Part shown: piece after piece, positions 14,870 to 29,489 of the stretch | Layout of the letters: each line of letters starts with the position of its first letter | How positions within the stretch are numbered: position 1 is the stretch's first letter | NCBI RefSeq assembly: GCF_012163145.1 | Contig: NZ_JAAVTX010000008.1 | Coordinates: 62,001-126,000 of the forward strand | DNA: 64,000 bases | Origin: Falsiroseomonas frigidaquae | GTDB taxonomy: Bacteria; Pseudomonadota; Alphaproteobacteria; Acetobacterales; Acetobacteraceae | Direction of reading: 5' to 3' | Translations under genes and position numbers: made by a program | Notes under the pieces: generated by a model | What the model was told of the DNA's origin: nothing | What the model saw: the letters and a program-made list of their open reading frames with translations, nothing else | Database searches by the model: none

Positions 14870-15841
14870 TCAGCCGTGCAGGTAGCAGGCGACGCCGCCC
14901 TGGCCCTCGCCGGCCGAGGTCCAGCGCGGCATCTCCTGGCTGCATTGCGGCATGGCGTGCGGGCAGCGCGGATGGAAGGGGCAGCCCGGCGGCGGGTTGG
15001 CCGCCGACGGGATCTCCCCGATGATGCGCGGCAGCACGCCGCGCCGCGACGGGTCCGGAATCGGCGAGGCGTCGCGCAGCATCTGCGCATAGGGGTGCAG
15101 CGGGTTGGCCAGCACGCGGCCCGCCGGCCCCTCCTCCACGATGCGGCCGAGATACATCACCGCGACCCGGTCGCAGAACCAGCGCACCACGGAAAGGTCG
15201 TGGCTGACGAACAGGAAGGACAGGCCGCGCCGCTTGCGAAGGTCCTGCATCAGCAGCAGCACCTGCGCCTGCACCGAGACATCCAGCGCGGAGACCGGTT
15301 CGTCCGCCACGATCAGCTCCGGCTCAACCGTCAGCGCGCGGGCGATGCCGATGCGCTGGCGCTGGCCGCCGCTGAATTCATGCGGGAAGCGGTCCAGCGC
15401 CGCGGGCGGCAGGCCCACCTCCTCCAGCAGCGCGCCGGCGCGGCGGCGGGCTTCCTGGCCCTCCGCCAGGCCATGCACATGCATCGGCTCCATCAGCGCG
15501 CTGCCGATGGATTGCCGCGGGTCGAGCGAGGAATAGGGGTCCTGGAAAACGATCTGCATGCGCCGGCGCAGCGCCTTCAGCGCGGCCCCCTTGGCGGTCA
15601 GCACGTTCTCACCCTTCCAGGTGACGGTACCGGCATCGGGCTCGATCAGCCGCAGCAGGGCGCGGGCGGCGGTGGATTTGCCGCAGCCGGATTCGCCGAC
15701 CAGGCCGAAGGCCTCGCCGGCATTGATGGTGAAGGAGATGTCCTCGACGGCGCGCACGCGAACGGTGCGCGGCGTCGGGAAACCCTTCTTGGCGACGAAG
15801 TGCTTGCGCAGCCCGTCGACGACGAGGACGGGTGCGGTCAT
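14870..15841 (-). CDS. DppF-like ABC transporter ATP-binding protein
   Basis: A 323-residue ATPase of the dipeptide/oligopeptide/nickel class. Walker A is GESGCGKST, the signature is FSGGQRQR, Walker B is ELIVADEP and the switch is SHDL. The C-terminal oligopeptide-transporter extension has the Cys-rich GCPFHPRCPHAMPQC, a typical Fe-S-like signature of DppF/OppF proteins. It overlaps the permease gene by ATGA, completes a DppB-DppC-DppF run, and pairs with the DppD-like ATPase at 22810-23796 in the same long transcription unit. Confidence 0.93.
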   Translation of the reverse strand: MTAPVLVVDGLRKHFVAKKGFPTPRTVRVRAVEDISFTINAGEAFGLVGESGCGKSTAARALLRLIEPDAGTVTWKGENVLTAKGAALKALRRRMQIVFQDPYSSLDPRQSIGSALMEPMHVHGLAEGQEARRRAGALLEEVGLPPAALDRFPHEFSGGQRQRIGIARALTVEPELIVADEPVSALDVSVQAQVLLLMQDLRKRRGLSFLFVSHDLSVVRWFCDRVAVMYLGRIVEEGPAGRVLANPLHPYAQMLRDASPIPDPSRRGVLPRIIGEIPSAANPPPGCPFHPRCPHAMPQCSQEMPRWTSAGEGQGGVACYLHG

Positions 15842-16716
15842 TCGTTCCTCAGCTTCGGGTCAGTGGCGTCGCGCAGGCCGTCGCCCACCATGTTCAGCCC
15901 CAGCACCAGGAACAGGATCGCCAGGCCCGGAAACACGGCGAGCCATGGTGCATCCAGGATGTTCTCGAAGCCGTCCCGCGTCATGCCGCCCCAGGTCGCG
16001 GTCGGCGGCTTCACGCCGAGGCCGATGAAGGACAGGGACGCCTCCACCCGCACGGCGGTGGCCAGCCACAGCGTGCCCATCACCATCACCTCCGACAGGA
16101 TATTGGGCAGGATGTGGCGGAACAGCACGCGGGTGTGGCTGAAGCCGAGCGCGCGGCCGGCCTCCACGAAGGCGCGTTCCTTCAACGCCAGCGTGGGTGC
16201 GCGGGCAACGCGGGCGAAGGGCGCGATGGCGGTGAGCGCGATGGCCACCACCAAGTTCACCAGCTCCGGCCCCAGCAGCGCCACCACGATCAGGCCGAGG
16301 ATGAGCGAGGGGAAGGACAGCAGCACATCCATCACCTGCATCACGAACAGGTCGAACTTGCCGCCGATATAGCCGGAGACCAAGCCGATGGCGCCGCCGA
16401 TGATGGCGGCGGCGAAGATGGCACCGAGCGAGACCGTCAGCGAGATCTGGCCGCCCCACATCAGGCGCGAGAGGATGTCCCGCCCGAACTGGTCGGTGCC
16501 CAGCCAGAATTCAGCGGAGGGCGCTTGCAGCCGGTTGAAGATGTCCTGTTCCGCCGGATCATAGGGCGCGATCCAGGGGGCGAGGATGGCAGACGCCATG
16601 ATGACAAGGCAGATCACCACCCCCACAGCCGTGGTCGGATTGCTGCGCGCCTTGCCCAGCGCGCGCTTCCAGCCGGCCTGCGCGGGTGGCGCAACCAGTT
16701 CCTGTGTCGCGCTCAT
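15838..16716 (-). CDS. DppC-like ABC transporter permease
   Basis: A 292-residue inner-membrane permease. It has an N-terminal cytoplasmic stretch, a first membrane helix (about residues 25-47: VGVVICLVIMASAILAPWI), the OppC_N pattern LGTDQFGRDILSRL, further helices, and the EAA loop (FVEAGRALGFSHTRVLFRHILPN). ATG 16716 is fixed by the ATGA overlap with the DppB stop; longer upstream frames lack membrane sequence. It forms the transmembrane channel with DppB, driven by DppD and DppF. The family moves short peptides, opines or similar zwitterions. Confidence 0.92.
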   Translation of the reverse strand: MSATQELVAPPAQAGWKRALGKARSNPTTAVGVVICLVIMASAILAPWIAPYDPAEQDIFNRLQAPSAEFWLGTDQFGRDILSRLMWGGQISLTVSLGAIFAAAIIGGAIGLVSGYIGGKFDLFVMQVMDVLLSFPSLILGLIVVALLGPELVNLVVAIALTAIAPFARVARAPTLALKERAFVEAGRALGFSHTRVLFRHILPNILSEVMVMGTLWLATAVRVEASLSFIGLGVKPPTATWGGMTRDGFENILDAPWLAVFPGLAILFLVLGLNMVGDGLRDATDPKLRNE

Positions 16717-17654
16717 TCCGCCTTCACCCGTGGATCGATCACGCCGTACAGCAGATCGGTGATGAGGTTCACCACGACGATCAGGAAGCAGTAGATCACC
16801 ATCAGCCCCTGCAGCATCGTGTAGTCCCGCTGGTTCAGCGCGCCGACGATGATCTTGCCCAGACCCGGCCGGTTGAAGACGATCTCCGTCAGCACCGAGT
16901 TGCCGAGCAGGATCCCGACATAGAGCCCCACCACGGTGACGATGGGGATCGAGGCATTCCGCAGGCCATGCACCCAGACCACGCGCCGCCACGGCACGCC
17001 CTTGGCGCGCGCGGTGCGGATATAGTCCTCACTGAGCGAGGCCAGCATGGCGCTACGCGTCACCCGCGTGATGTAGGCCGCCATGATCAGGCCGAGCGCC
17101 ACGGTGGGCAGCACCAGCTTGTGCAGCCGGTCGCCATAGTCGGCGAGATCCGCGCCGCCGATGACGGGGAACCACCGCCAGTGCAGCGAGAAGGCCAATA
17201 GAAGAAAAATGCCGGAGACGAAGACCGGGAAGGACAGGCCGAGCAGCGACAGCACCCGCGCCGCCACATCCACCACGCCGTTGCGGTTCAGCGCCGCCCA
17301 GATGCCGACCGGCACGCCGATGACGACGCCGAAGATCATCGAGGCGATGGTCAGGTCAAGCGTATGCGGCAACACCGCCGCGACCTCTGCCGTGATCGAA
17401 CGGCCGGTGACCATGGAGACGCCGAAATCGCCGACCAGCGCGCTGGTGATGAAGCTGAAATACTGCGCCCACAGCGAGCGATCCAGGCCGAGCCTGGTGC
17501 GCAGCGCCGCAATCGCCTCCGGCGTCGCCTGGTCGCCCAGGATCACCAGCGCCGGGTCGCCGGGCACGATGCGGACGATGATGAAGACCAGCGTCAGCAC
17601 CGCGATCAGCGTCGGCACGGCGGCCAGCAGGCGGCGGATGACGAAGCCGGTCAT
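16713..17654 (-). CDS. DppB-like ABC transporter permease
   Basis: A 313-residue permease with the classic N terminus (MTGFVIRRLLAAVPTLIAV, then LTLVFIIVRIVPGDPA), about six membrane helices, and the EAA loop YIRTARAKGVPWRRVVWVHGLRN. It ends with LITDLLYGVIDPRVK, typical of DppB. It is the first of three ATGA-linked membrane/ATPase genes. A 133-bp palindrome-rich gap separates it from the receptor gene upstream in the same direction; such a gap commonly lets receptor transcripts outnumber those of the channel. Confidence 0.93.
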   Translation of the reverse strand: MTGFVIRRLLAAVPTLIAVLTLVFIIVRIVPGDPALVILGDQATPEAIAALRTRLGLDRSLWAQYFSFITSALVGDFGVSMVTGRSITAEVAAVLPHTLDLTIASMIFGVVIGVPVGIWAALNRNGVVDVAARVLSLLGLSFPVFVSGIFLLLAFSLHWRWFPVIGGADLADYGDRLHKLVLPTVALGLIMAAYITRVTRSAMLASLSEDYIRTARAKGVPWRRVVWVHGLRNASIPIVTVVGLYVGILLGNSVLTEIVFNRPGLGKIIVGALNQRDYTMLQGLMVIYCFLIVVVNLITDLLYGVIDPRVKAE

Positions 17655-17659
17655 GCCGT

Positions 17660-17780
17660 GGCCCCCAGCCCGACCCTCCCCCGCTCCGCGGGAGAGGGGA
17701 AAGACGGCCGCTCCTCCCTACCCCGCCTGCGGGGGGTTGCGGCGCTGCTGCAACGCCGAAGGCTGGCCAGGGTGGGGGCC
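17660..17780. repeat. Palindromic intercistronic element (REP-like)
   Basis: The 133-bp gap between receptor and DppB genes is almost all inverted repeats. GGCCCCCA (17660-17667) pairs with 17773-17780. Inside are CCCGC-TCC-GCGGG (17680-17692, flanked by CCCTCC and AGAGGGG), CCCCGC-CT-GCGGGG (17721-17734) and GTTGC/GCAAC (17736-17754). A related CCCTCCCC/GGGGAGAGGG palindrome occurs at 24954-24988. It probably stabilises or partly terminates the receptor mRNA. Confidence 0.65.
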
Positions 17781-17787
17781 AGGCTCC

Positions 17788-19347
17788 TCACCGCAGCCGC
17801 GTCGCTTCGGTGATCAGCGGGCCGAGGCTCATCGAGCCCTTCAGCTCATAGCCATAGTCAAGGTTGTCGCGGCGGGCGAAGACCAGCAGGGTCTCGATCA
17901 ACGGCACGCCGCAGACATTCTGCACCAGGATGCGCTGTGCCTCCGCCCAGAGCCGCTTCTGCTCCTCGATGTCCGTGCTGACGCGCGCCGCATCGATCTG
18001 GCTGTCCGCCTGGCTGCAATGCGAGAAATTCGTCACCGCCGTCGGCGTGCGGACACGCGACCGGCCATGGAAGAACTGCGTCATGTAGATATCCGCCACC
18101 GGGAAACGCGCCGCGGAGTAATACACCATCGGCGACAGATCCTGCCGGATCTGCTGGTGGAAGGTGGCGTGCTCCACGACCTGCAGGTCGAGCGTGATGC
18201 CGGACCGGCGCAGCTGCTGCTGCACCACCTGCATCATGTTCAGCATCTCCGGCAGCTGCGTGTGGATCACGCGGATGGTGATGCCGTTCGGATGCCCCGC
18301 CTCCGCCAGCAGCGCCCGCGCCCGCGCCGGGTCCGCCGGCAGCAGGCCATTGTCGTTGGTGAAGCCGAGGTAGCCGCGCGGCACCACGGATTGCGCCTCA
18401 CGCGCCACATCCTGGCCGCGGAAGCGCACCAGCTCCGACCGGTTCACCGCATGCGCCATCGCCTGGCGGATGCGGATGTCGTTGAAGGGCGGCTGGTTGG
18501 TGTTGAGGTGCAGGATCGCCAGTTCACCCGGCTCGAACACATCGACCACCGTGTTCGGCACCTGCCGCGTGCGGTTCACCCAGGTCTGGTCGCCGCGGCC
18601 GTAGTTCAGATCCAGCTCCCGGTTCTGGAAGGCCAGGTCGCGGGAGGCGTCGGAGGGGATGAAGCGGTAGCTGATGCGCCCGATCTGCGGCGCGCCCCGG
18701 TAGTACTGCGCATGCGCCACCAGCTCCGCCGACTGGTTCGGCGTCACGCGGTCCAGCGCGAAGGGGCCGGTGCCAATCGGCGAGCGCACGAAATTGTCGC
18801 CCCGCTCCTCCACCGCCCGCTTCGAGACGATGTAGCCGCCCGAGTAGTTGGTCAGGATGCCCAGCATGCTCGGGATGTTTTCCCGCAGCACGATGCGGAC
18901 GGTGTGGCTGTCCACCGCCTCGATGGTCTCGATCGCGCGGTAGTCGGCGGCGAAGGCGCTGGTCGCGGCGGTGCCGGATTTGCGCAGCGAGAAGACGACA
19001 TCCTCAGCCGTCAGCTCGCCATATCCGCCATGGAACTGCACGCCGCGGCGCAGATGGAAGGTCCAGGTCTTGCCATCCGCGCTGCTCTCCCAACGCTCGG
19101 CGAGATCGGGCTCGATCTCGGCCGGGTTGATGGAACCGGGCTTGAAGCGGACCAGCCCGTTGAACATCCACGCCACCACGACACGATCGATGGTGGAGAC
19201 GGCGAAATGCGGATCGAGCCGACCCACATCCTGCGCCGCCATGCCGACGCGCAGCGTCTGGCCTTGCGCCATGGCGGTCGTGTTGAACCCGATGGCGGAC
19301 GCAATGGCCAGGGCGCTGCCAAGCAGCGCCGCCCGAAATCCCCGCAT
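17788..19347 (-). CDS. ABC transporter substrate-binding protein, family 5 (opine/peptide type)
   Basis: A 519-residue periplasmic receptor with signal peptide (MRGFRAALLGSALAIASAIG...AMA). The family blocks are QTLRVGMAAQDVGRLDP, WMFNGLVRFKPGS, TFHLRRGVQFHGG, GTGPFALDRV and ADPARARALLAEAG. It lies between the flavoenzyme genes and DppBCF, 32 bp after the former, and is the expected receptor of this transporter. It is paralogous to the divergent receptor at 27981-29489, with matching openings and matching GPLITEATRL / GPAITAATRL ends. Two receptors may therefore feed one channel. Confidence 0.9.
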   Translation of the reverse strand: MRGFRAALLGSALAIASAIGFNTTAMAQGQTLRVGMAAQDVGRLDPHFAVSTIDRVVVAWMFNGLVRFKPGSINPAEIEPDLAERWESSADGKTWTFHLRRGVQFHGGYGELTAEDVVFSLRKSGTAATSAFAADYRAIETIEAVDSHTVRIVLRENIPSMLGILTNYSGGYIVSKRAVEERGDNFVRSPIGTGPFALDRVTPNQSAELVAHAQYYRGAPQIGRISYRFIPSDASRDLAFQNRELDLNYGRGDQTWVNRTRQVPNTVVDVFEPGELAILHLNTNQPPFNDIRIRQAMAHAVNRSELVRFRGQDVAREAQSVVPRGYLGFTNDNGLLPADPARARALLAEAGHPNGITIRVIHTQLPEMLNMMQVVQQQLRRSGITLDLQVVEHATFHQQIRQDLSPMVYYSAARFPVADIYMTQFFHGRSRVRTPTAVTNFSHCSQADSQIDAARVSTDIEEQKRLWAEAQRILVQNVCGVPLIETLLVFARRDNLDYGYELKGSMSLGPLITEATRLR

Positions 19348-19379: not shown

Positions 19380-20498
19380 TTAGACCGCTCCGGAGGCCGC
19401 CGTGAAGCGCCCGATATCGAATGCATCGAGCGGCACGTCCGTCGCGCCATCCATCACCAGCTCCGACAGCACCGCGCCGACGCCCGGGCCGGTCTGGAAG
19501 CCCTCGCCGCAGAAGCCGAAGGCATGCAGCAGGCCGGGCGTGGTGTGGGACGGGCCGAGCACCGGGAAATGGTCCGGCATCTCGCCATCCGTGCCGGTCC
19601 AGCTTCGGATCACCATGGCATCCGCCAGGCGCGGGATGACCGCGATGGCGCGCTGCATCGCACCAAAAGCCGCATCGGGGCGCGGCCGCGTCACCCGGAT
19701 TTCCGCATCGCTCTCGCCGCGCCCGCCGCCGAAGATGACGTTGCCGCGCGGGATCTGGCGCAGATACAGGTCGCCGCCGACCACGCCGAGGCTCTCGCGC
19801 AGAAAATAGGGCAGCGGCTCCGTCACCAGCATGTTCGGGTGCAGCTTCTCGATCGGCACCGCCTCCCCGAACCGCGCCGCAATCTCGCCGCCCCAGAAGC
19901 CGGCGCAGTTCAGCAGCCAGGGTGCGGTGAAGCCCTGGCCATTCGCCAGCACCTCGAAGTTGCTGCCGTCATGCGCGAAAGCCGTGACCGCATGGTGTTC
20001 CCGGATATCGGCGCCGGCCGCACGCGCCGCACGTGCCAGCGCCGGGGCCAGCAGGCGCGGATTGGCGGAGCCATCCTCCTCCATCAGGCTGCCGGCGATG
20101 ACGACATCGCTGAAATACGGGTGCTGTTGCCGGATCGCGTTGCGGCCGATCATGCGCGGGCGCAGGCCGTGTTCCGCGGCCAGCGCGTTCCAGCGCAGCA
20201 GTTCCGCCTCATCCGCCGCACTGCGAGCGAGCTTCAGATGCCCGCAGGGATCGAATTCCACATCCGCGCCGGTGAGTTCAGTGATGCGTGACCAGATTTC
20301 CCGCGACTTCCGCGCCAGCGGCAGGCCGGCCGGGTCGCGGCCCTGCTGGCGCACGCCGCCATAATTCACCCCGGTCGCCTGCCCGCCGACCAGCCCGCGT
20401 TCCAGCAGCACCACGCGCACGCCACGCCTTGCCAGGTGCAGCGCCGCGGAACACCCCGCGCCGCCGCCACCGACAACCAGCACATCCGCCTGGACCAT
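19380..20498 (-). CDS. FAD-dependent oxidoreductase, DadA/opine-oxidase beta (HcnC)-like subunit
   Basis: A 372-residue DAO-fold flavoprotein. The ADP-binding motif DVLVVGGGGAGCSAALHLARRG starts at residue 5. The family end IRSWTGTDGEMPDHFPVLG, then HAFGFCGEGFQTGPGVG, completes the FAD site. It belongs with glycine/D-amino-acid oxidases and HcnC/OoxB subunits, which oxidise a C-N bond of an amino acid derivative. ATG 20498 shares one base with the stop of the alpha subunit gene, giving a gamma-alpha-beta order typical of three-subunit opine, hydroxyproline and cyanide-forming dehydrogenases. Confidence 0.85.
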   Translation of the reverse strand: MVQADVLVVGGGGAGCSAALHLARRGVRVVLLERGLVGGQATGVNYGGVRQQGRDPAGLPLARKSREIWSRITELTGADVEFDPCGHLKLARSAADEAELLRWNALAAEHGLRPRMIGRNAIRQQHPYFSDVVIAGSLMEEDGSANPRLLAPALARAARAAGADIREHHAVTAFAHDGSNFEVLANGQGFTAPWLLNCAGFWGGEIAARFGEAVPIEKLHPNMLVTEPLPYFLRESLGVVGGDLYLRQIPRGNVIFGGGRGESDAEIRVTRPRPDAAFGAMQRAIAVIPRLADAMVIRSWTGTDGEMPDHFPVLGPSHTTPGLLHAFGFCGEGFQTGPGVGAVLSELVMDGATDVPLDAFDIGRFTAASGAV

Positions 20499-21856
20499 CA
20501 GCCCACCTGTTGCAGCGGCACCGGCTTCACCGGCGGCTGGCCGCGCAAGCGCCCCACTTCCGGCACCTCCACCTGCAGCGCACGCGCCAGCACGGCCGCC
20601 GCCGGCGTGCCACACAGGCGCCCCTGGCAGCGCCCCATGCCGATGCGGGAGAAGGCCTTGGCCCGGTTGAGCTCCGGCGCATCCGCCGCCGCCGCGGCGC
20701 GCAATTCGCCGGCCGTGATCACCTCGCAGCGGCAGACGGAGGTACTGTCCTCCATCCGCGCGGCCAGCCGCGCCGGATAGGGGAAGGCCTGTTCCAGCGC
20801 CGCGCGGAAGCGGCGCTCGGTGCGCAGCCTGCCATCCAGATGCTTGCTCAAGGCCATGTCGGAGGGCAGCTTCGCATCGGCCAGCAGCGCCAGCGCCGCG
20901 CGCGCGCCGCCGAGTTCCGCCACATCCACCCCGCCGATGCCGGCGCCATCGCCCGCCAGGTACACGCCCGCCATCGGAGACCGCCCGGCGGCATCCTTGC
21001 GCGGCACCCAGTTCTGCTGCGTCGCATCATAATCGAAGGGCACGCCGGCGAGGTCGGCCAACTGCGCCTCCGGCTTCAGCCCCCAGCCCATCGCCACCGC
21101 ATCGCAGGGGGTGACGTGTTCCTTCCACGCCGCGTCGCGCCAATGCACGGCGGTGACGTTGTCGACCCCCTCGATCGCCAGCGGCGTGATGTCCTCATGC
21201 AGCTTCACGCCACGCAGCTTGAGCTGGGCGTACAAACCCATGCCGCGCAGCAGCGTCGGCACGTTCCACAGCATGCCGGCGCCGAAGCGCGCCTTGGTGA
21301 GAAAATCCGTGGTGTCCAGCACCGCCGCCGGCTTGGCGCCGGCCTTGGCGTATTGCAGCGCGGTCAGCCACAGCAGCGGGCCCGTGCCGATCAGCACCGG
21401 GTTGGCACCAACCCCCACCCCCTGCGACTTCAGCGCCACCTGCGCGCCGCCGAGCGTGGTGGCGCCGGGCAGGTTCCAGCCGGGCAGCGGCAGCACGCGG
21501 TCCATCGCGCCGGTGCACAGGATCAGCGCACCATAGGCCACCTCATCCTGCGCCGCGCCATTGGCCAGGATATGCAGGACCTTGGCGTCCGGCCGGATGT
21601 TCCAGACCAGCGTGTCCGGCCGCCAATCGACCCGCGCCTTCAGCGCATCCAGCGTGGCGTGCAGGCGCTTGGCGCGACCGGCATCGGCGCCGTACAGCGC
21701 GGCATGGCTGCGGCTGAAGCCGGCTGGCGGGCGCTGGGTGATGCGGCCGCCGCCATCGGCGCCCTCCTCGATCCAGATCGGCGTGACGCCGGCCCGGACA
21801 AGCTGCTCCACCGCGCGGATACCGGCAGGGCCGGCGCCAACCACCACAACCTTCAT
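20498..21856 (-). CDS. Opine-oxidase alpha (HcnB)-like FAD/NAD(P)-binding subunit with [2Fe-2S] C terminus
   Basis: A 452-residue pyridine-nucleotide-disulfide-type flavoprotein. The first dinucleotide fold is MKVVVVGAGPAGIRAVEQLV; a second sits in the middle (VLIGTGPLLWL); AGDGAGIGG is the late FAD motif. The C-terminal BFD-like domain (about residues 375-425) has C-R-C-E and GRCQGRLC, four cysteines for a [2Fe-2S] cluster. It is coupled to the small ferredoxin-like gene (ATGA) and to the beta subunit. It probably relays electrons from the beta-subunit flavin. Confidence 0.87.
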   Translation of the reverse strand: MKVVVVGAGPAGIRAVEQLVRAGVTPIWIEEGADGGGRITQRPPAGFSRSHAALYGADAGRAKRLHATLDALKARVDWRPDTLVWNIRPDAKVLHILANGAAQDEVAYGALILCTGAMDRVLPLPGWNLPGATTLGGAQVALKSQGVGVGANPVLIGTGPLLWLTALQYAKAGAKPAAVLDTTDFLTKARFGAGMLWNVPTLLRGMGLYAQLKLRGVKLHEDITPLAIEGVDNVTAVHWRDAAWKEHVTPCDAVAMGWGLKPEAQLADLAGVPFDYDATQQNWVPRKDAAGRSPMAGVYLAGDGAGIGGVDVAELGGARAALALLADAKLPSDMALSKHLDGRLRTERRFRAALEQAFPYPARLAARMEDSTSVCRCEVITAGELRAAAAADAPELNRAKAFSRIGMGRCQGRLCGTPAAAVLARALQVEVPEVGRLRGQPPVKPVPLQQVG

Positions 21857-22128: not shown

Positions 22129-22809
22129 AGCAGCGCCTCGAACCGGCAATTCACCTTCAGCTCGCCGACGCTGGCGGTATTGGGCAGGCGCATCACCATC
22201 TCGGCCAGCGCCGCCACATCCTCCGGCCGGCTCATCGCCTCGCGCGGGAATTTCGCCGCCATGGTCATTTCCGTCGCGACGAAGCCGGGGCAGATCGCGG
22301 TGGCGCGGATGCCATGTTCCCAGCCGAGCCGCCGCACTTCCTGCGTCAGCGCCACCACGGCGAATTTGCTCATCGCGTAGCCGAGATTCTCATTCGCCAC
22401 GCGCTTGCCGGACAGCGAGGACAGGTTCACCACCCTGCCCTCCCCGCCCGCGACCAGATGCGGCCAGGCGGCGCGGATGAGGCGCATCGGGGCCTTCACA
22501 TTGACCCGCCACATGGCGTCGTGCTCGGTCTCGTCTTCATCCAGCAGGCGCGCCTTGGGGTTGATGCCGGCGGCGTTCACCACCGCGTCGATCCGCCCGA
22601 AGCGCGCCATGGTCGCGGCCACCCAGGCCTCGGAACTGCCCGGCTGCTCGGCATCCCAGCGATGCAGCATCAGGTCCGGCCCGGCCACAAGCTTGCCGGG
22701 GCTGCGGATGCCGGCGCTGATCAGCCAGCCGGAGCCATGCAGGCGGCGCAGGACTTCGCGCCCGATACCGCGCGAGGCGCCGGTGATGAGGACGACGCGA
22801 CCGACCGGA

Positions 22810-22817
<8 letters not shown>
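22125..22817 (-). CDS. SDR-family oxidoreductase
   Basis: A 230-residue classical short-chain dehydrogenase. The cofactor motif is [11 protein letters not shown], the NNAG equivalent is [11 protein letters not shown], the active site is S (LSSLSG) with YAMSK, and PGFVATEM follows. It overlaps the DppD-like gene by 8 bp upstream and the gamma subunit by GTGA downstream, so it is embedded in the transport/oxidase train. It likely acts on the carbonyl product of the flavoenzyme, or prepares the substrate. NAD versus NADP preference cannot be settled. Confidence 0.87.
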
Positions 22818-23796
<979 letters not shown>

Positions 23797-23826: not shown

Positions 23827-24942
23827 TCAAGCCGGAACGGTAAAGCGGTCCTGCGTGAAGGGCGCGATCGGCAGGTTCGTGGCGCCACGCGCCATCAGCT
23901 CCGCCACCGCGGCGCCGGCGGCGGGGGAAAGCTGGAAGCCGTGGCCGGAGAAGCCGAAGGAATGGAACAGGCCGGGCAGGCTGCGGCTTTCACCGATCAC
24001 CGGCATGTCGTCCGGCGGCCGCGCCTCGGTGCCGGTCCAGGTGCGGATGATCCGCGCGCCGGCGACGCAGGGGAAGATCTGCGCCGCGATCTGGGCGGCG
24101 AAGGCCAGGCTGCCGAACAGGACGGAGGAGGTCTCCGCCACCTTGTCGTTGCGTCCCTGATGGCCGCCACCGATCACCACCGTGCCGGCCGCCGTCTGCT
24201 TGAAGGACAGCGCCCGGGCCGTCGCGCCCACGGTGGGATCGACGAAATGCGGCAGGCGCTCCGTCACGATCATCATGCTGGCCTTGGTGCCGCAGGGGAT
24301 GGTCTCGCCGGCCAGCGCGGCGAGATCGGGCGCCCAGGCGCCGGCGCAATTGGCCACGCGCTCGGCCTCGAATTCGCCCTGGTCCGTCTGCACCCGGATG
24401 CTGCCATCGGCGGTGCGGTCGAGCCCGGTGACGGCGACGCCTTCGCGGATCACCACGCCCGCCTGCTCCGCCGCGCGCCGGAAGGCCATCACCGTCCGCA
24501 TCGGATCGGCCGAGCCGTCATCACGCGTGACGATGGCGCCGACCACATGGCGGGACACGGCGGGCAGCAGGCGGCGGACCTCCGCCTGGTCCACCACCTC
24601 CTCATGCGTCCAGCCAAGCGCGCGGACCTGCGCGACGCGGGCGTGGTTCTTCGCCATGTCGGCCTCGCTCTCGGCCACCTTCACCTGGCCGGTGGCACGG
24701 AAGCCGCAATCATCGCCGACCAGCGCCTCGATGCCGTGCCACATCTCGGCCGCGATGACGGAGAGCGCAATCTCCGGCAGCGCCCGGCCGAGGCGCCGCA
24801 CGCCGCCCGCATTCACCCCGCTGGAATGCCGCCCGACATGGCGGCGCTCCAGCAGCGTGACCTGCCAGCCGGGGGTGCGTGCCAGATGCAGGGCGGTGGA
24901 CAGCCCATGCAGCCCGCCGCCGATGACGAGCGCCTTCTTCAT
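23827..24942 (-). CDS. FAD-dependent oxidoreductase, DadA/opine-oxidase beta-like
   Basis: A 371-residue DAO-fold flavoprotein: MKKALVIGGGLHGLSTALHLA, SSGVNAGGVRRLGR, a mid-region GSADPMRTV, and the closing IRTWTGTEARPPDDMPVIG and FSGHGFQLSPAAG. It is clearly related to the protein at 19380-20498 and less so to that at 26778-27914, making three beta-type subunits in one gene train. It probably oxidises an N-substituted amino acid together with the alpha/gamma pair encoded just upstream. A strong palindrome lies between it and the alpha gene. Confidence 0.84.
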   Translation of the reverse strand: MKKALVIGGGLHGLSTALHLARTPGWQVTLLERRHVGRHSSGVNAGGVRRLGRALPEIALSVIAAEMWHGIEALVGDDCGFRATGQVKVAESEADMAKNHARVAQVRALGWTHEEVVDQAEVRRLLPAVSRHVVGAIVTRDDGSADPMRTVMAFRRAAEQAGVVIREGVAVTGLDRTADGSIRVQTDQGEFEAERVANCAGAWAPDLAALAGETIPCGTKASMMIVTERLPHFVDPTVGATARALSFKQTAAGTVVIGGGHQGRNDKVAETSSVLFGSLAFAAQIAAQIFPCVAGARIIRTWTGTEARPPDDMPVIGESRSLPGLFHSFGFSGHGFQLSPAAGAAVAELMARGATNLPIAPFTQDRFTVPA

Positions 24943-24988: not shown

Positions 24989-25013
24989 TTCGGCCAAGCC
25001 GATACGGGCGTCA

Positions 25014-26501
25014 TCATCCCGCCAGCGCCGCCAACTCGCCCAGCGTCAGCGGCTTGGTCGGGAAGCGGGTGCGGAAGGGCTCCACCTCGCCCCCCTCCAC
25101 GCCGCGCGCCGCCGCGATCACCCCATGCACCGCCGGCCCGCATATCCGCCCCTGGCAGGGTCCCATGCCGGCCCTGGTAAAAGCCTTGGTCTGGTTGGCG
25201 CCGAGGCAGCCCAGCCCCACCGCCTGCCGCACCCGCCCGGCCGTCACTTCCTCACACCGGCAGAGGATGGTCTCGTCCGGGATGGCGGCTTCCGGCAGGG
25301 GCGGGAACATCGCATCCAGGAACGGGCGCGGCGCCAGTTGGCGGTCGCGCAGCAGGCGCAGCGGCCCGGACCTGGCGTCGCGTTCATCCGTGGTGATGCG
25401 GCCCAGCGCGCGCGCCGCTTCCAGCGCCGCGATGCGACCGGATAGCGCCGCGGCGCGGGCGCCGCCGATGCCGCCCGAATCACCCGCCACCATCACCCCG
25501 GCCACCGCCGTATTGCCCCAGACATCCAGCCCCGGCCGCCAGCAGCGCTGCACCGGGTCCCAGCCATGGGTCACGCCGGCGATGGCGCGCGTAACCTGGG
25601 TATTCGGCACCACGCCATCATGCAGCAGCAGCAGATCCGCCGCATGCGCCACGCCATCCACCAGGATGCGTTCCAGCCGCCCCTCGCCTTCGGCCCGCAA
25701 TTCCCGCGCCGGAGTCACCTGCACCGCGCGCTTCACCTGGCGCTGCCAGACAAGGCCGCGCCAGAGATATTCCGGCGCCTTCAGCGCCCGCATCAGATAG
25801 GGCCGCGCCCGCGCAAAGCCGCCGGGCGGCGACAGGTCGATGATGCCGGCGATGCGCCCGCCCTTGGCCAGCGCCTGGACCGCATAGAGCCACAGCAGCG
25901 GCCCCTGCCCGGCCAGCCAGACATTCCCCTCCGGCACCAGCCCGGCCGTCTTCAGCGCGATCTGCGCGGCGCCGACGCTCATCACCCCCGGCAGGGTCCA
26001 GCCCGGGATGGGCAGCGGCCGCTCCGTGGCGCCGGCGGCGAGGATCAGCCGCTCCGCCTGGATGGTCCGGGCCGCGCCACCCTCGGACCAGAAGACCTTG
26101 CCGCCGGGTTCCACGGCCCAGAGCGTGGCGTTGGGCCGGTACTGCGCGCCGGAGGCCCGAAAGGCGGCGGCGAGCTTGGCGCCGTCCTTGTCCTGGTCGT
26201 CCGACACAGCGCCCTTTGCCAGACGCGCCTCGACGGCGCCCTTTGCCAGACGCGCCTCGACGGCGCCCTTTGCCAGACGCGCCTCGACGGCGCCCTTTGC
26301 CAGACGCGCCTCGACGGCGCGATGCACCTGCCCGCCCGGCGCCCCATTCTCATCCAGCACCAGCACCCGCATGCCATGCGCGCGCGCCTCGGTGGCCGCC
26401 GCCATGCCGGCGGGACCGGCGCCGAGCACCAGCAGGTCTACGCTCTCCGCCACCGGCGCCGTGGCCTCCTGTCCGGCGGTCCATTCGTCGGCGACGCTCA
26501 T
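25014..26501 (-). CDS. Opine-oxidase alpha (HcnB)-like subunit with internal 9-residue repeat
   Basis: A 495-residue flavoprotein like that at 20498-21856. VDLLVLGAGPAGMAA starts near residue 21, a second nucleotide fold holds WLAGQGPLLWL, the late FAD motif is AGDSGGIGG, and the C-terminal [2Fe-2S] domain has CRCEE and GPCQGRIC. After GGQVHRA it carries VEARLAKGA four times (about residues 63-98), encoded by perfect 27-bp repeats. The frame is kept, so the protein is probably made with a 27-36 residue insertion in a loop after the first FAD-binding segment. ATGA overlap with the gamma gene. Confidence 0.87.
   Translation of the reverse strand: MSVADEWTAGQEATAPVAESVDLLVLGAGPAGMAAATEARAHGMRVLVLDENGAPGGQVHRAVEARLAKGAVEARLAKGAVEARLAKGAVEARLAKGAVSDDQDKDGAKLAAAFRASGAQYRPNATLWAVEPGGKVFWSEGGAARTIQAERLILAAGATERPLPIPGWTLPGVMSVGAAQIALKTAGLVPEGNVWLAGQGPLLWLYAVQALAKGGRIAGIIDLSPPGGFARARPYLMRALKAPEYLWRGLVWQRQVKRAVQVTPARELRAEGEGRLERILVDGVAHAADLLLLHDGVVPNTQVTRAIAGVTHGWDPVQRCWRPGLDVWGNTAVAGVMVAGDSGGIGGARAAALSGRIAALEAARALGRITTDERDARSGPLRLLRDRQLAPRPFLDAMFPPLPEAAIPDETILCRCEEVTAGRVRQAVGLGCLGANQTKAFTRAGMGPCQGRICGPAVHGVIAAARGVEGGEVEPFRTRFPTKPLTLGELAALAG
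26209..26316. repeat. Four perfect tandem copies of a 27-bp coding repeat
   Basis: Units 26209-26235, 26236-26262, 26263-26289 and 26290-26316 are identical, each beginning GCGCCCTTTGCCAGACGC. On the coding (reverse) strand each gives VEARLAKGA, so copy-number change would keep the reading frame. The lack of any divergence between copies points to recent or ongoing expansion. Confidence 0.95.
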
Positions 26502-26794
26502 GCCGCCTCCTCCTCGAAGCTGCGGGCGCCGTGCTGGATCCCGGCGACCAGGCCAGGCGTCACCGGCACCAGGCAGGCCTGCATGTTCTGCGTGCCCGCC
26601 ACCTGCACCAGGCAGTCGAAGCAGGCGCCCATCAGGCAGAGCGGGCCGCGTGCCGCGCCCGTCACCGGCGTCTCCCGGAAGCTGGTGATGCCGGCGGCCA
26701 GCAGCGCCGCGGCCAGGCTTTCGCCGGCGCGTGCAGGAAGCTCCCGCCCCTCCCAGACAATGGTGCAGTCGGTGGGCTCAGTGCGACGAAACAT
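26498..26794 (-). CDS. Small [2Fe-2S] protein, opine-oxidase gamma-like subunit
   Basis: A 98-residue ferredoxin-like protein with LCLMGACFDC and MQAC: C-x4-C-x2-C-x11-C, the same pattern as its paralogue at 21853-22128. It also has GESLAAALLAAG as in HcnA-type subunits. It overlaps the beta-like gene upstream by 17 bp and the alpha gene downstream by ATGA, so a full beta-gamma-alpha set is made from 27914 to 25014. It probably carries electrons from the flavin sites to a quinone or other acceptor. Confidence 0.88.
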   Translation of the reverse strand: MFRRTEPTDCTIVWEGRELPARAGESLAAALLAAGITSFRETPVTGAARGPLCLMGACFDCLVQVAGTQNMQACLVPVTPGLVAGIQHGARSFEEEAA

Positions 26795-27914
26795 GGGTCA
26801 TCCCAAGGAAGCGGTCCGGGTGCAGGTCGCGCGCGTGGTCCGGCAGCGCGCCGGTCAGGATCGCCTCCGCCAGCGGGCCGGCATGCACCGCGGCGAGCGT
26901 GACGCCGGAATGGCAGGTGGCAACGAAGCAGCCGGGATGCGTCGCGCTTTCGGCATAGGCCGGAAAACCATCCGGCGTCATCGGCCGCAGCGCCGCCCAG
27001 CTGCGCACCATCCGCGCCTGGCCGAGCACCGGCAGCACCCGCAGCGCGCGGGCGGCCATGCGGGCCAGGGCGGCGGTGGTGGTCGCGGCCTCGAAGCTGC
27101 CGTCATCCTCGCTGGTCACGCCGATCTGCACCGTGCCGTCGCCGGTCTGGCGGATGGCGCTGGCCGGCAGCGGCAGGATCGGCGCCAGGCGCTCGGTCAC
27201 GATGTTCTGGCCGCGCACCGGACGCACCGGCACGTCCAGGCCAATCATTTTCCCGAGTGGCGTCGTCTTCACGCCGGCTGCGATCACGATGCGCCGCGCC
27301 GCCACCTCGCTGCCATCCTCGCGCAAAATCCGGTAGCCGCCCGCCACGGGTTCCACCGCCTGCACCGCCGCACCCGGCAGATGCGTGCCGCCGGCCCCGC
27401 GCATGCCGGCCTGCAGGCCGCGCAGCAGGGTCAGCGGATCGACATGGCCATCGGCCGGCTGGAAGCTGGCGCCGCGCACCTCCGGCCCCAGCGGACAGCC
27501 GGGCATCAGTTCGGCCAATTCCCGGCGGTCCAGCATCCGCAGGCCTTCCTGGCCCTGGTTGTGCATGCGCTGCACGAACTGGCTGCGGGCGGCGAATTCC
27601 CCCTCATCCAGGCAGAAGGTCAGCCCGCCCACCGCGCGGTACTGCACGTCCCGCCCCGCCAGCGCCGAGGCGCGTTCCGCCAGCGCCGGCCACAGCGCCA
27701 CGCTGCGGCGGGTCCAGGCAGCATAGGCGGGCATGCCGTCGCCCTTGGATTGCGACCAGACCAGCCCGAAGTTACCGCGCGCCGCGCGCAGCGCCACATC
27801 GCCCTCATCCAGCACGGCCACCCGCGCGCCGCGTTCGGCGCAGCCGAAGCCGATGGCGGAACCGACCATGCCGCCGCCGATGATCGCCACGTCAAACATA
27901 TCAGGGGAAGACAT
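26778..27914 (-). CDS. FAD-dependent oxidoreductase, DadA/opine-oxidase beta-like
   Basis: A 378-residue DAO-fold flavoprotein: FDVAIIGGGMVGSAIGFGCAERG, NFGLVWSQSKGDG, a long central substrate domain, and the closing VRSWAALRPMTPDGFPAYA and CHSGVTLAAVHAG. It is the first gene of the 13-kb reverse unit, 66 bp from the divergent receptor at 27981. The start may be ATG 27914 or ATG 27899; neither has a strong ribosome site. It resembles opine and sarcosine-type oxidases. The compound oxidised is not evident. Confidence 0.83.
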   Translation of the reverse strand: MSSPDMFDVAIIGGGMVGSAIGFGCAERGARVAVLDEGDVALRAARGNFGLVWSQSKGDGMPAYAAWTRRSVALWPALAERASALAGRDVQYRAVGGLTFCLDEGEFAARSQFVQRMHNQGQEGLRMLDRRELAELMPGCPLGPEVRGASFQPADGHVDPLTLLRGLQAGMRGAGGTHLPGAAVQAVEPVAGGYRILREDGSEVAARRIVIAAGVKTTPLGKMIGLDVPVRPVRGQNIVTERLAPILPLPASAIRQTGDGTVQIGVTSEDDGSFEAATTTAALARMAARALRVLPVLGQARMVRSWAALRPMTPDGFPAYAESATHPGCFVATCHSGVTLAAVHAGPLAEAILTGALPDHARDLHPDRFLGMTHVSSH

Positions 27915-27980
27915 GCTTGCGAGGGTGGCGCGGCCGGGACCATCCTGCAAGCCGGGAAGGCTCTCGGAAGGACAGAACAG

Positions 27981-29489
27981 ATGCGAAGCACGCTGCTGGC
28001 GATGGCGCTGGCGCTGACGTTGCCGCTCGGGGCCCAGGCGCAGACGCTGCGGGTCGGGCTGATCGCGCAGGACATGGGCACCACGGACCCGCACCGCGCC
28101 AGCGCAACGCAGGACAAGGCACCACTCGCCTGGGCCTATGACGGGCTGGTGCGCTTCCCGCCCGGCTCCGCCGACCCGGCGAAGCTGGAGCCGGATCTGG
28201 CGGAGCGCTTCACCCGCAGCGCCGACGGCCTGACCTACACCTTCCACCTGCGCCCCGGCGTGCGCTTCCACGATGGCAACCCGCTGGAAGCCGAGGATGT
28301 GGCCTATTCGCTGCGCCGCGCCGCGGACAGCGCCCGCAGCGCCTTCGCCGGCAGCTACGCGCCGATGACGGCGGTGGAGGTGGTGGACCCGATGACGGTG
28401 CGCGTCACGCTGAAGGAAGCGGTGGCCGGCGCGCTCGGGCTCTTCGCCAACTACCATGGCGGCATGATCGTCTCCCGCCGCGCCGATGCCGGCGGGCAGC
28501 CGCCGGGCACCGGGCCGTTCCGGCTGGAGCGCGCCGGCGGCGGCGCGGCACGCATGGTGGCCTTCGACGGGCATTGGCGCGGCCGCCCGGCGATCCGCGC
28601 CATCGACCTGCGCTTCATCACAAGCGATGCGACGCGGGAGCTGGCCTATACCGCCGGCGAGCTGGACCTGATCATCGGAAGGCGGGAACAGCGCTGGGTG
28701 GCGCGGATGCAGGCGCATCCGAACACGGTGGTGGAGGTATTCTCCCCCGGCGAGTTCCGCACCCTGCTGATCAGCAGCCGCAGCGCGCCGCTGAACGATG
28801 TGCGGGTGCGCCATGCGGTGCAGCATGCGATCGACACGCAGGGCATCGCCCGCTTCGTCGGGCTGGATGTCGCCACCCCCTGGGCCAGCCCGGTGCCGCC
28901 CGGCTACCTCGGCGCGACGGAGGATGTGCCGCGCTTCCCGCACGATGTCGCCCGCGCGCGCGCCCTGCTGGCGGAGGCCGGGCACCCGGATGGCGTGACG
29001 ATCCGCGCCGTCGTCTCCTCCAACTCCGCCCAGCTTCCGGTGATGGAAGTGATCCAGGCGCAGCTGCGGCGCGCCAATATCCGGCTCGACATGGATGTGG
29101 TGGAACACGCCACCTACCATGCCCGCATCCGGCAGGACCTGTCGCAGCTCACCTTCTATGGCGCCGCGCGCTACCCGGTGGCGGACAGCTATCTCAGCCA
29201 GTTCTACCATTCCCGCAGCGCGCCCGGGCAGCCGACCATGTCGCTGAACTTCGCCCATTGTAGCGCAGCGGATACCGAGATCGACGCGGCGCGGGCCGAG
29301 CCGGATGAGGCGAGGCAGCTGGCGCTTTGGGCCACGGCGCAGCGCAAGGTGATGGAGGCCGGCTGCAGCCTGCCGCTGTTCGACCTGAAGCAGGTCTGGG
29401 TGCGCCGGGCCGGGCTGAACCTGGGCTACCGGCTGGAGGGCGCGCTGAACCTCGGCCCGGCCATCACGGCCGCCACCCGCCTGGAATGA
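27981..29489 (+). CDS. ABC transporter substrate-binding protein, family 5 (opine/peptide type)
   Basis: A 502-residue periplasmic receptor with a short signal peptide (MRSTLLAMALALTLPLGAQA). QTLRVGLIAQDMGTTDP, YDGLVRFPPGS, TFHLRPGVRFHDG and GTGPFRLERA follow. ATG 27981 has GGAAGGACAG upstream. It is divergent from the long oxidase/transporter unit and paralogous to the receptor at 17788-19347; it probably loads the same DppBCDF channel with a second ligand. The frame is open far upstream, but only because it runs antisense to real genes. Confidence 0.9.
   Translation: MRSTLLAMALALTLPLGAQAQTLRVGLIAQDMGTTDPHRASATQDKAPLAWAYDGLVRFPPGSADPAKLEPDLAERFTRSADGLTYTFHLRPGVRFHDGNPLEAEDVAYSLRRAADSARSAFAGSYAPMTAVEVVDPMTVRVTLKEAVAGALGLFANYHGGMIVSRRADAGGQPPGTGPFRLERAGGGAARMVAFDGHWRGRPAIRAIDLRFITSDATRELAYTAGELDLIIGRREQRWVARMQAHPNTVVEVFSPGEFRTLLISSRSAPLNDVRVRHAVQHAIDTQGIARFVGLDVATPWASPVPPGYLGATEDVPRFPHDVARARALLAEAGHPDGVTIRAVVSSNSAQLPVMEVIQAQLRRANIRLDMDVVEHATYHARIRQDLSQLTFYGAARYPVADSYLSQFYHSRSAPGQPTMSLNFAHCSAADTEIDAARAEPDEARQLALWATAQRKVMEAGCSLPLFDLKQVWVRRAGLNLGYRLEGALNLGPAITAATRLE

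What the first reader, a model, noticed from the sequence alone, without database searches (positions are those of the whole stretch)
14870..29489. Opine-oxidase-like supercluster: two alpha, two gamma, three beta subunits, one transporter, two receptors
Thirteen genes from 27914 down to 14870, mostly overlapping, mix subunits of heteromeric flavo-iron-sulfur dehydrogenases (HcnABC, opine oxidase and hydroxyproline dehydrogenase type) with an SDR and a complete Dpp-type importer. The DppD and DppF genes are split by oxidase genes. A second, paralogous receptor is divergent. This suggests a pathway for two related N-substituted amino acids, with beta subunits swapping on shared alpha/gamma pairs.
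Basis: partly seen in the sequence, partly recalled or inferred. Interest (0 to 1): 0.7.

Follow-up and report, generated by a model that had tools for sequence, protein, structure and literature searches.

The report
Double opine-dehydrogenase operon sharing one importer
A soil-type bacterium carries, in one long gene cluster, the parts to import and break down opine-like N-linked amino acids with two related three-part enzymes; one of them can probably swap its business end, perhaps so that it can take mirror-image forms of the same food.

Summary
In detail: 13 same-strand genes (27914 to 14870), 8 of 12 junctions overlapping, with 2 alpha, 2 gamma and 3 beta subunits, an SDR, one Dpp-type importer and a second, divergent receptor. 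It is two modules round one importer. Module B, beta1-gamma1-alpha1-beta2 plus the divergent receptor, matches OdhB1-C-A-B2 of Bradyrhizobium, where two betas assemble on common alpha and gamma (PMC4575208), and sacEFGH/lecFGH of Ti plasmids. Module A, dppD-SDR-gamma2-alpha2-beta3-dppABCF, stands without module B in 7 fetched loci and has its own alpha and beta clades. The importer resembles the succinamopine/leucinopine type (51-60% to pTiBo542). So beta swapping is supported for beta1/beta2 and already known; it is not supported for beta3. New here: the fused operon, and a reciprocal switch of likely carboxylate-binding residues: Trp53/Arg310 in type-1 betas (Arg302 of glycine oxidase), Arg49/Glu306 in type-2 betas (sarcosine-oxidase-type Arg). 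With the opine stereochemistry of a few Ti plasmids this suggests that beta1 takes D,L- and beta2 L,L-diastereomers on one core. That is inference: substrates, assembly and expression are untested, and a type-2 enzyme does oxidise octopine, weakly.

The parts
26778..27914 (-). beta1 (type-1, OoxB/NoxB/OdhB1/SacE-like DAO-family catalytic subunit)
   Evidence: PF01266 E=9e-58; in the Oox/Nox clade, UFB/SH-aLRT 100/100; GxGxxG and RxW motifs
26498..26794 (-). gamma1 (2Fe-2S small subunit, OdhC/SacF-like)
   Evidence: PF13510; C-x4-C-x2-C-x12-C
25014..26501 (-). alpha1 (FAD / BFD-type 2Fe-2S subunit, OoxA/NoxA/OdhA-like)
   Evidence: PF07992, PF04324, PF17806; inside the Oox/Nox/Lec alpha clade, SH-aLRT 99, quick tree
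23827..24942 (-). beta2 (type-2, OdhB2/SacH/LecH-like catalytic subunit)
   Evidence: PF01266; with the pTiBo542 and pTiChry5 betas, type-2 clade 100/99
22810..23796 (-). importer ATPase DppD
   Evidence: ABC_tran + oligo_HPY; 54% to the first half of the pTiBo542 and pTiChry5 fused ATPase
22125..22817 (-). short-chain dehydrogenase, overlapping gamma2 by 25 nt
   Evidence: PF00106 E=8e-38; kept next to gamma2 in the fetched module-A loci except L107
21853..22149 (-). gamma2 (2Fe-2S small subunit)
   Evidence: PF13510; C-x4-C-x2-C-x12-C
20498..21856 (-). alpha2 (own clade, apart from OoxA/NoxA)
   Evidence: PF07992, PF17806, PF04324; clade
19380..20498 (-). beta3 ('type-3' catalytic subunit, nearest to type 2)
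   Evidence: PF01266; type-3 clade 100/99
17788..19347 (-). receptor DppA, follows module A
   Evidence: PF00496; own clade 100/100
16713..17654 (-). permease DppB
   Evidence: PF00528; 58-59% to the pTiBo542/pTiChry5 permease
15838..16716 (-). permease DppC
   Evidence: PF00528; 60% to the pTiBo542/pTiChry5 permease
14870..15841 (-). importer ATPase DppF
   Evidence: PF00005 + PF08352; 51% to the second half of the fused ATPase
27981..29489 (+). receptor DppA2, divergent, follows module B
   Evidence: PF00496; groups with LecA/SacA-type receptors (rooted, SH-aLRT 84; unrooted, 100/100)
27922..27950 (-). promoter-like element TTGCAGG-N16-CACCCT ending 7 nt before the beta1 start
   Evidence: conserved in several Falsiroseomonas/Roseomonas/Rhodovarius relatives; 1 match in the window, 0.01 expected; function inferred
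26985..26987 (-). codon of beta1 Arg310 (position of glycine-oxidase Arg302)
   Evidence: Arg in 27 of 27 type-1 rows and 13 of 13 in a second set; alignment with 1ryi
24025..24027 (-). codon of beta2 Glu306 (same alignment column)
   Evidence: Glu in 18 of 18 type-2 rows and 16 of 16 in a second set
24796..24798 (-). codon of beta2 Arg49 (Arg of the sarcosine-oxidase-type IIR motif; mostly Trp in type 1)
   Evidence: alignment with 2gag_B; Arg in 18 of 18 and 15 of 16 type-2 rows

Best explanation
This is a chromosomal-type catabolic operon for opine-like iminodiacids (N-carboxyalkyl amino acids). Receptors DppA and DppA2 deliver two related ligands to one shared permease/ATPase set (DppBCDF). 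In the cytoplasm, heteromeric flavo-iron-sulfur dehydrogenases oxidise the secondary amine to an imine, which hydrolyses to an amino acid and a 2-oxo acid; electrons pass from FAD in beta via FMN and 2Fe-2S to FAD in alpha and on to the respiratory chain. Dehydrogenase 1 is gamma1-alpha1 with either beta1 or beta2 (OdhB1-C-A-B2 architecture). Dehydrogenase 2 is gamma2-alpha2-beta3 with a coupled SDR that probably works on its product or substrate. Shown here: gene content, conservation, modularity, phylogeny, intact cofactor motifs. Known from homologues: subunit sharing, FAD/FMN/FeS content, opine oxidation. Inferred: substrates, shared permease use, SDR role, electron route, single transcript.
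For: Family hits. Beta and alpha trees. Cofactor motifs: gamma Cys motif in 18 of 18 (2 window, 16 plasmid rows); alpha CxC...CxxxxC in 29 of 29 alpha1-type rows and in the 22 of 23 alpha2-type rows that reach that region; beta RxW in 27 of 27, 17 of 18 and 22 of 22 type-1, -2 and -3 rows. Module logic: full order in 10 loci, module A without B in 7, module B without A in L066 and L067 and in 11 of 16 class-level loci; L107 has both modules round one importer in another order. On plasmids, L096 holds receptor-LysR-B1-C-A-B2-permeases-ATPase-octopine/nopaline-DH-family gene, and L086/L087 hold importer plus gamma-alpha-beta2. Bradyrhizobium OdhAB1C and OdhAB2C were purified (PMC4575208). sac/lec regions (PMC6733357, passages). 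Hydantoinase genes, proposed there to open lactam opines, lie in the fetched stretch of six loci with gamma2-alpha2-beta3 (L029, L064, L068, L071, L072, L081; clusters; Pfam run on the L029 pair only; L068 and L071 show only a cut hydantoinase_B-like gene).
Against: No opine-synthase-type gene, arginase, ornithine cyclodeaminase, RidA or LysR gene was found among the window genes scanned (32458-33594 and genes beyond about 34.3 kb were not scanned). The four-gene module also occurs with importers whose permeases do not match dppB/dppC (L088, L089, L097), so importer kinship does not fix the substrate. Identity to named opine-oxidase subunits is moderate (beta1 39-45%, alpha1 39-42%). No transcript, protein or growth data.
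Confidence: 0.75

Rival explanations
1. Division by side chain, not stereochemistry: beta1, beta2 and beta3 take chemically different opines (for example pyruvate- versus 2-oxoglutarate-derived, or different amino-acid halves), all with the same handedness.
For: PMC4575208: the P. putida type-1 enzyme prefers nopaline about 11,000-fold (kcat/Km) over octopine, while Bradyrhizobium OdhAB2C takes octopine and not nopaline. [quoted passage not shown]
Against: The switch Trp/Arg versus Arg/Glu lies at the likely carboxylate anchor, not obviously at a side-chain pocket.
Confidence: 0.4
2. One of the two betas of module B is a relic: only beta2 (or only beta1) forms a working enzyme in vivo, as OdhA and OdhC of B. 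japonicum preferred OdhB2 over OdhB1.
For: PMC4575208: OdhAB1C had about 1/50 of the specific activity of OdhAB2C and assembled poorly. In pTi6.2 a beta2 remnant lies after an intact B1-C-A; L091 carries a broken beta1 and L092 a split alpha.
Against: Beta1 and beta2 are both intact and conserved in L001-L004 (88-95% and 91-94% identity), and the 27 type-1 and 18 type-2 rows keep their type-specific residue at the 310/306 column.
Confidence: 0.25
3. Module A is not for opines proper but for N-alkyl glutamates, lactams or polyamine-type amines, with the SDR or HyuAB handling the other half.
For: Related gamma-alpha-beta sets on plasmids stand with other ABC importers (L032, L033, L034; annotated only as ABC transporter, polyamine-type is my guess). 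Hydantoinase, HutF-, GlcD- and MR_MLE-family genes stand near gamma2-alpha2-beta3 in some relatives (clusters; one member of each tested). PMC10410297 describes a rideopine, N-(4'-aminobutyl)-D-glutamate, region that in three plasmids includes lactamase/hydantoinase and ABC-transporter genes (passage).
Against: In the window and in 20 other fetched loci (L001-L009, L011, L012, L062, L064, L065, L069, L070, L073, L081, L101, L107) module A stands with the same Lec-like importer.
Confidence: 0.45
4. Cross-pairing: beta1 or beta2 also assembles on alpha2-gamma2, so all three betas share both cores.
For: In L065 beta1 lies directly before module A and no gamma1/alpha1 match lies in the 19.9-kb stretch.
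Against: Alpha1 and alpha2 are separate clades, about 37% identical; the L065 genome has a second type-1 beta elsewhere.
Confidence: 0.12
5. Hydroxyproline, proline-betaine or cyanide-type function (D-HypDH, HcnABC).
For: Same superfamily and subunit make-up (PMC4575208); the names HcnC/A/B are used in one record for a type-1 set beside octopine transport genes.
Against: No hydroxyproline-epimerase or deaminase-type gene among the scanned neighbours; the named relatives among type-1 rows are opine oxidases, and the importer is Lec-like.
Confidence: 0.05

Closest known systems
Flavin-containing opine dehydrogenase OdhB1-C-A-B2 of Bradyrhizobium japonicum (PMC4575208)
   Same: Gene order beta1-gamma-alpha-beta2; a type-1 and a type-2 beta with one alpha/gamma pair; cofactor motifs.
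   Different: Here the module is joined to a second, distinct gamma-alpha-beta set, an SDR and a split Lec-like importer with a second receptor. The B. japonicum sequences themselves were not compared.
sac region of pTiEU6 and lec regions of pTiBo542/pTiChry5 (PMC6733357; L086, L087)
   Same: Importer kinship (51-60% identity to pTiBo542/pTiChry5), LecA/SacA-type receptor, type-2 beta and, for sac by the paper, the four-gene B1-C-A-B2 set.
   Different: No LysR gene and no opine-dehydrogenase-family gene in the operon here; ATPases separate (DppD, DppF), not fused; no T-DNA context among the genes scanned.
B1-C-A-B2 cluster of Agrobacterium plasmid pAtCFBP4996a (L096)
   Same: Receptor, B1-C-A-B2, permeases and ATPase in one cluster (43-62% identity).
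   Different: One dehydrogenase only in the cluster; fused ATPase; octopine/nopaline dehydrogenase family gene at the end.
OoxB-gamma-OoxA and NoxB-C-A of Agrobacterium (L035, L036, L094, L099)
   Same: Type-1 beta, gamma and alpha in the same order (beta identity 39-45%).
   Different: No type-2 beta beside it; on L035 and L099 an amino-acid-type Occ/Noc importer; arginase and ornithine cyclodeaminase beside it.
Archaeal L-proline dehydrogenase beta, 1y56_B
   Same: Best PDB sequence match of beta2 and beta3 (E=1e-32 and 2e-32); Arg at the 49/50 position.
   Different: Distant (identity not computed); Tyr at the 306 column; its alpha N-terminus replaces a separate gamma (PMC4575208 legend).

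Membership tests
Flavin-containing opine dehydrogenase (OpnDH), module B | beta with N-terminal ADP/FAD motif and Arg-X-Trp | tested here: met
   GxGxxG and R304-S-W in beta1, R300-T-W in beta2
Flavin-containing opine dehydrogenase (OpnDH), module B | gamma with C-x4-C-x2-C-x11-12-C | tested here: met
   gamma1 residues 53-74
Flavin-containing opine dehydrogenase (OpnDH), module B | alpha with FAD motif and CxC...CxxxxC | tested here: met
   alpha1 residues 414-454; spacing 32, where the paper prints 15-20
Flavin-containing opine dehydrogenase (OpnDH), module B | beta1 and alpha1 within the Oox/Nox clades; beta2 in the type-2 clade | tested here: met
   B. japonicum sequences themselves were not available, so 'type 2' rests on synteny and on the pTiBo542/pTiChry5 betas
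Flavin-containing opine dehydrogenase (OpnDH), module B | alpha4beta4gamma4 assembly and dye-linked opine oxidation | not testable with these tools
   needs purified protein
Flavin-containing opine dehydrogenase (OpnDH), module A | alpha and beta within the Oox/Nox/Lec clades | tested here: not met
   alpha2 and beta3 form separate clades; motifs are intact, so it may still work alike. B. thailandensis OdhC-A-B could not be placed
Lec/Sac-type opine importer | permeases, ATPases and receptors akin to LecA-D | tested here: met
   58-60% permeases, 51-54% ATPases; receptors in one clade (SH-aLRT 99) with LecA/SacA-type receptors
Lec/Sac-type opine importer | fused double ATPase | tested here: not met
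   DppD and DppF are separate genes about 7 kb apart
D-hydroxyproline dehydrogenase | linked hydroxyproline epimerase/deaminase genes (recalled as a feature) | tested here: not met
   none among the genes scanned
D-hydroxyproline dehydrogenase | beta phylogeny | not tested
   no verified reference sequence at hand
Hydrogen cyanide synthase HcnABC | beta phylogeny with true HcnC | not tested
   no verified reference; the gamma-alpha-beta order of module A alone is not diagnostic

The most novel reading that the evidence does not exclude
The swap is stereochemical. On one alpha1-gamma1 core, beta1 (Arg310, glycine-oxidase-type carboxylate anchor) oxidises the D centre of D,L-iminodiacids, while beta2 (Arg49 with Glu306, sarcosine-oxidase/L-proline-dehydrogenase-type anchor) oxidises the L centre, so one core consumes both diastereomers; beta3 is a further L-type enzyme. 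This would explain why the B1-C-A-B2 set recurs, and predicts that B. japonicum OdhAB2C attacks octopine on its L-arginine side.
Probability: 0.4. Interest if true: 0.65.

Novelty: new variant of a known kind. Interest (0 to 1): 0.45.

Why it matters
The 2015 Bradyrhizobium work showed two unrelated catalytic subunits on one core without saying why bacteria would keep both; I found no answer in the papers I saw. The residue switch offers a direct test. The cluster also shows opine-type catabolism as a stable trait of Acetobacteraceae, away from crown gall, and joins it to a second dehydrogenase type whose substrate should resemble the first, since both appear to share one permease.

Tried and rejected
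AlphaFold models of beta1 and beta2 from 8-row alignments were poor (mean pLDDT 59 and 46), so no fold search was run and nothing is drawn from them.

pTiEU6 is not in the plasmid collection, so its gene content is from PMC6733357 only. No verified HcnC or D-HypDH reference was found; the Klebsiella record named HcnC/A/B stands beside octopine transport genes and falls in type 1, so its name was not used as a reference. PMC11767727 was searched for passages and added nothing on the subunits.

The gene finder used for neighbour surveys is my own codon log-odds script trained on 18 window genes; some starts are misplaced. The GxGxxG test gave 4 apparent misses (L096 and L004 type-1 betas, L065 beta3, L004 alpha2), which I put down to cut or miscalled N-termini without checking each; the RxW test gave one miss (L067 beta2). 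My first alpha2 Cys pattern was too narrow (16 of 23); reading the rows showed the four Cys in the 22 that reach that region, L075 being cut by its contig end.

Rows left out before counts: near-duplicate or partial loci L001-L003, L006-L008 and L010 from the trees; several rows by length filters (among them L080 beta1, L074 beta2, L079 and L031 alpha); four long-branch rows (L030_b2_11, L063_b2_1, L063_b2_10, L073_b2_16) from the careful beta tree and the residue counts (they are, outside types 1-3). The alpha tree is a quick tree without bootstrap.

Considered and rejected: that the 13-gene order is a chance neighbourhood; that the M20 peptidase 29554-30849 belongs to the set (beside dppA2 in L001, not in L002-L004, L009, L011 or L012).


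Full report
WHAT IS THERE. The window lies on a contig of an unnamed 6.08-Mb genome; its nearest named relatives are Falsiroseomonas, Acetobacteraceae (beta3 91-94% identical in L001-L003). Thirteen minus-strand genes run from 27914 to 14870, with 8 of 12 junctions overlapping. Pfam gives three DAO proteins (beta1-3), two Fer2_4 proteins (gamma1, gamma2), two Pyr_redox_2/Fer2_BFD/SO_alpha_A3 proteins (alpha1, alpha2), an SDR and a complete SBP_bac_5/BPD_transp_1/ABC_tran importer, with a second SBP_bac_5 receptor divergent at 27981.

TWO MODULES. The full order plus the divergent receptor recurs in L001-L004, L009, L011 and L012 (7 of the 15 loci), in L062 and L064 and in L101, from another family of the class. 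Module A (dppD-SDR-gamma2-alpha2-beta3-dppA-B-C-F) occurs without module B in L005-L007, L069, L070, L073 and L081. The set SDR-gamma2-alpha2-beta3 also occurs with other importer genes (L068, L071, L072) or none seen (L063). Module B (beta1-gamma1-alpha1-beta2) occurs apart from module A in L066 and L067; beta1-gamma1-alpha1 without beta2 in L076-L080. From, which lists 40 rows in other genomes, I fetched the 16 with a near-full-length beta2 match of at least 46% identity: 13 have beta1-gamma-alpha-beta2 (one with beta1 cut by the contig end), one has gamma-alpha-beta2 without beta1 (L113), one is cut by the contig end (L112) and one has beta2 alone (L115). L107 holds both modules round one importer in a different order, without SDR and without DppA2. 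DppA2 is present in the 10 full-order loci and in L074 and L075; it was not found in the fetched stretches of the seven module-A-only loci, of L065 or of L107. So the importer and the DppD/DppF split belong with module A, and the divergent receptor mostly travels with module B.

WHAT THE ENZYMES ARE. In a tree of 70 betas, three groups are each one clade with UFB 100: type 1 (beta1 with OoxB, NoxB and B1 proteins; 27 rows), type 2 (beta2 with the pTiBo542 and pTiChry5 betas and other B2 proteins; 18 rows) and type 3 (beta3 with gamma-alpha-beta sets L032, L033, L034 and L037; 22 rows) (quick tree with four more rows). Alpha1 lies inside the Oox/Nox/Lec alpha clade; alpha2 is separate. Within the alpha1 clade, alphas with type-1 betas only, type-2 betas only or both are mixed, as expected if betas were gained and lost on one kind of core; Watanabe et al. 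likewise report that all OdhA form a single subfamily (PMC4575208). Cofactor motifs are intact in the window proteins and nearly all rows (misses under Tried and rejected).

THE SWAP IS KNOWN. Watanabe et al. 2015 (PMC4575208; parts 1, 3, 4 and 5 of 6 read, plus passages) purified B. japonicum OdhAB1C and OdhAB2C from an OdhB1-C-A-B2 cluster, found no mixed complex, and called it subunit exchange. The pTiEU6 paper (PMC6733357; passages) describes sacE-F-G-H with a sacA receptor and sacBCD importer on pTiEU6, and lecF-G-H on pTiBo542 and pTiChry5. Module B is therefore a new member of that architecture, matched also by L088-L090, L096 and L097. In the window the permeases and ATPases are 51-60% identical to the pTiBo542 and pTiChry5 ones, and DppA2 groups with LecA/SacA-type receptors (rooted, SH-aLRT 84; unrooted, 100/100).

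WHY TWO BETAS: A STEREOCHEMICAL READING. Column comparison of the three types shows a reciprocal switch. Type 1 has Trp53 (93% of 27 rows) and Arg310 (27 of 27); type 2 has Arg49 (18 of 18) and Glu306 (18 of 18); type 3 has Arg50 (22 of 22) and Asp or Glu at 304 (22 of 22). A second set, L101-L116, gave Arg at 310 in 13 of 13 type-1 betas (Trp at 53 in 12 of 12 that reach it), Glu at 306 in 16 of 16 and Arg at 49 in 15 of 16 type-2 betas, and Arg/Glu in 2 of 2 type-3 betas. Beta1 Arg310 aligns with the WAGLRP arginine of a glycine oxidase, 1ryi (chain position 315, which I equate with Arg302 by a recalled offset of 13); Arg302 binds the carboxyl group of active-site ligands (PMC4741190, passage; PMC3818420, passage). 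Beta2 Arg49 aligns with the arginine of the IIR motif of heterotetrameric sarcosine oxidase; that this is Arg52 of monomeric sarcosine oxidase is recalled, and Arg52 with Lys348 holds the carboxyl group there (PMC12582975, passages). So the two betas probably anchor the carboxylate from different sides. That glycine oxidase acts on D-amino acids is recalled; heterotetrameric sarcosine oxidase is said to react only with L-substrates.

TI PLASMIDS. pTiBo542 and pTiChry5, whose leucinopine and succinamopine are L,L, have an intact type-2 beta and no type-1 beta at the thresholds used; pTiBo542 also holds two further beta2-like pieces at 33-40% identity. pTiC58, pAtK84b and pAtAG67 have type 1 only; their opines are taken from annotation (nopaline, nopaline, octopine), and the D,L form of these from PMC4575208. 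pTi6.2, whose leucinopine is most likely D,L and whose strain consumes it while Bo542 and Chry5 left it (PMC10410297, passages), has type 1 intact and only a remnant of type 2 between alpha and the permease. pTiEU6 (D,L) has both (literature only). pTiCFBP4996 and pAtCFBP4996a have both; their opines are unknown to me. That is 5 of 5 D,L plasmids with type 1 against 0 of 2 L,L plasmids, but Bo542 and Chry5 carry near-identical genes, so the effective sample is very small. Against the reading: B. japonicum OdhAB2C oxidises octopine, a D,L opine (Km 19.5 mM; the assays in the parts I read are dye-based and I saw no product identification); pTiEU6 keeps both betas for D,L opines; and monomeric sarcosine oxidase takes D-proline better than L-proline, so an Arg52-type site does not guarantee L-specificity. 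None of the passages that I read links beta type to stereochemistry (searches; 'stereo' does not occur in PMC4575208; sacH and lecH do not occur in PMC10410297); I read none of these papers in full.

MODULE A. Its substrate is open. It shares the importer, so its ligand should resemble that of module B. Hydantoinase A/B genes lie near it or its paralogue in some genomes, including the paralogous gamma-alpha-beta set of the window's own genome (L029), and beside the nox genes on pAtK84b and pTiC58; PMC6733357 proposes that they open lactam opines. Other occasional neighbours, by cluster with one member of each tested, are HutF (L064, L081), GlcD-like (L069, L070, L074, L075) and MR_MLE (L068, L071) genes. 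I rate an N-substituted glutamate or its lactam as the likeliest substrate class, as inference.

EXPRESSION. Upstream of beta1 lies TTGCAGG-N16-CACCCT ending 7 nt before the start; a like element stands 7-11 nt before the beta1 match in L001-L003, L009, L011 and L062, with a changed second half in L004, and is seen in L012 though cut by my fixed window; it was not found in L064, L074, L075 and L101. It occurs once in the window (0.01 expected). The sigma-70 and terminator scans gave nothing above shuffles. A single 13-gene transcript is therefore inferred.

VERDICT. Observation confirmed; interpretation partly supported. A new variant of a known kind: an OdhB1-C-A-B2 opine dehydrogenase operon fused with a second dehydrogenase operon, for which I found no characterised member, round one Lec-like importer. 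The stereochemical explanation is the part worth testing.

Noticed in passing
window 26209-26320 (inside alpha1): Perfect 27-nt tandem repeat, 4.1 copies, in frame (VEARLAKGA); relatives L001 and L002 have about one copy, L003 and L004 less. Likely a recent slippage expansion.
   Followed up: partly
window 26060-26085 and 27920-27945: A 26-nt inverted repeat with one mismatch, one arm inside alpha1 and one in the promoter-like element of beta1; with up to 3 mismatches the genome holds these two and one weaker site. The best alpha1-arm-like match has 4 mismatches in L002 and 7-9 in L001, L003, L004, L011 and L012.
   Followed up: partly
window 24954-24988: A near-perfect palindrome GAAGCCCTC...GAGGGCTTC in the alpha1/beta2 spacer, the only match of that pattern in the genome; L001 has a shorter spacer. 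It could tune beta2 against beta1 expression.
   Followed up: partly
window 17655-17787: GC-rich palindromic spacer between dppA and dppB whose length varies among close relatives (roughly 20 to 130 nt).
   Followed up: no
G000:C9:724-727 kb (L029), G000:C15:309 kb (L030), G000:C14:94 kb (L031): Further gamma/alpha/beta sets in the same genome; the C9 set is 57-60% identical to module A and stands beside hydantoinase A and B genes.
   Followed up: partly
L065 (G038:C15): Beta1 directly before module A with no gamma1/alpha1 match in the fetched stretch: an orphan beta or cross-pairing with alpha2.
   Followed up: no
L098 10600-11300 (pTi6.2): Remnant of a type-2 beta (N-terminal and C-terminal parts only) between alpha and the permease of the leucinopine region.
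   Followed up: yes
window 600-5038: Ornithine/arginine/DAP-decarboxylase-type gene, saccharopine-dehydrogenase-family gene and a further SBP_bac_5 receptor in a row: perhaps polyamine metabolism.
   Followed up: no
L005-L007 versus window 44704-50173: In relatives without module B in the fetched stretch, genes whose clusters lie 15-20 kb away in the window (c11, c14, c18, c19) stand upstream of dppD, so the module-B junction coincides with a rearrangement.
   Followed up: no
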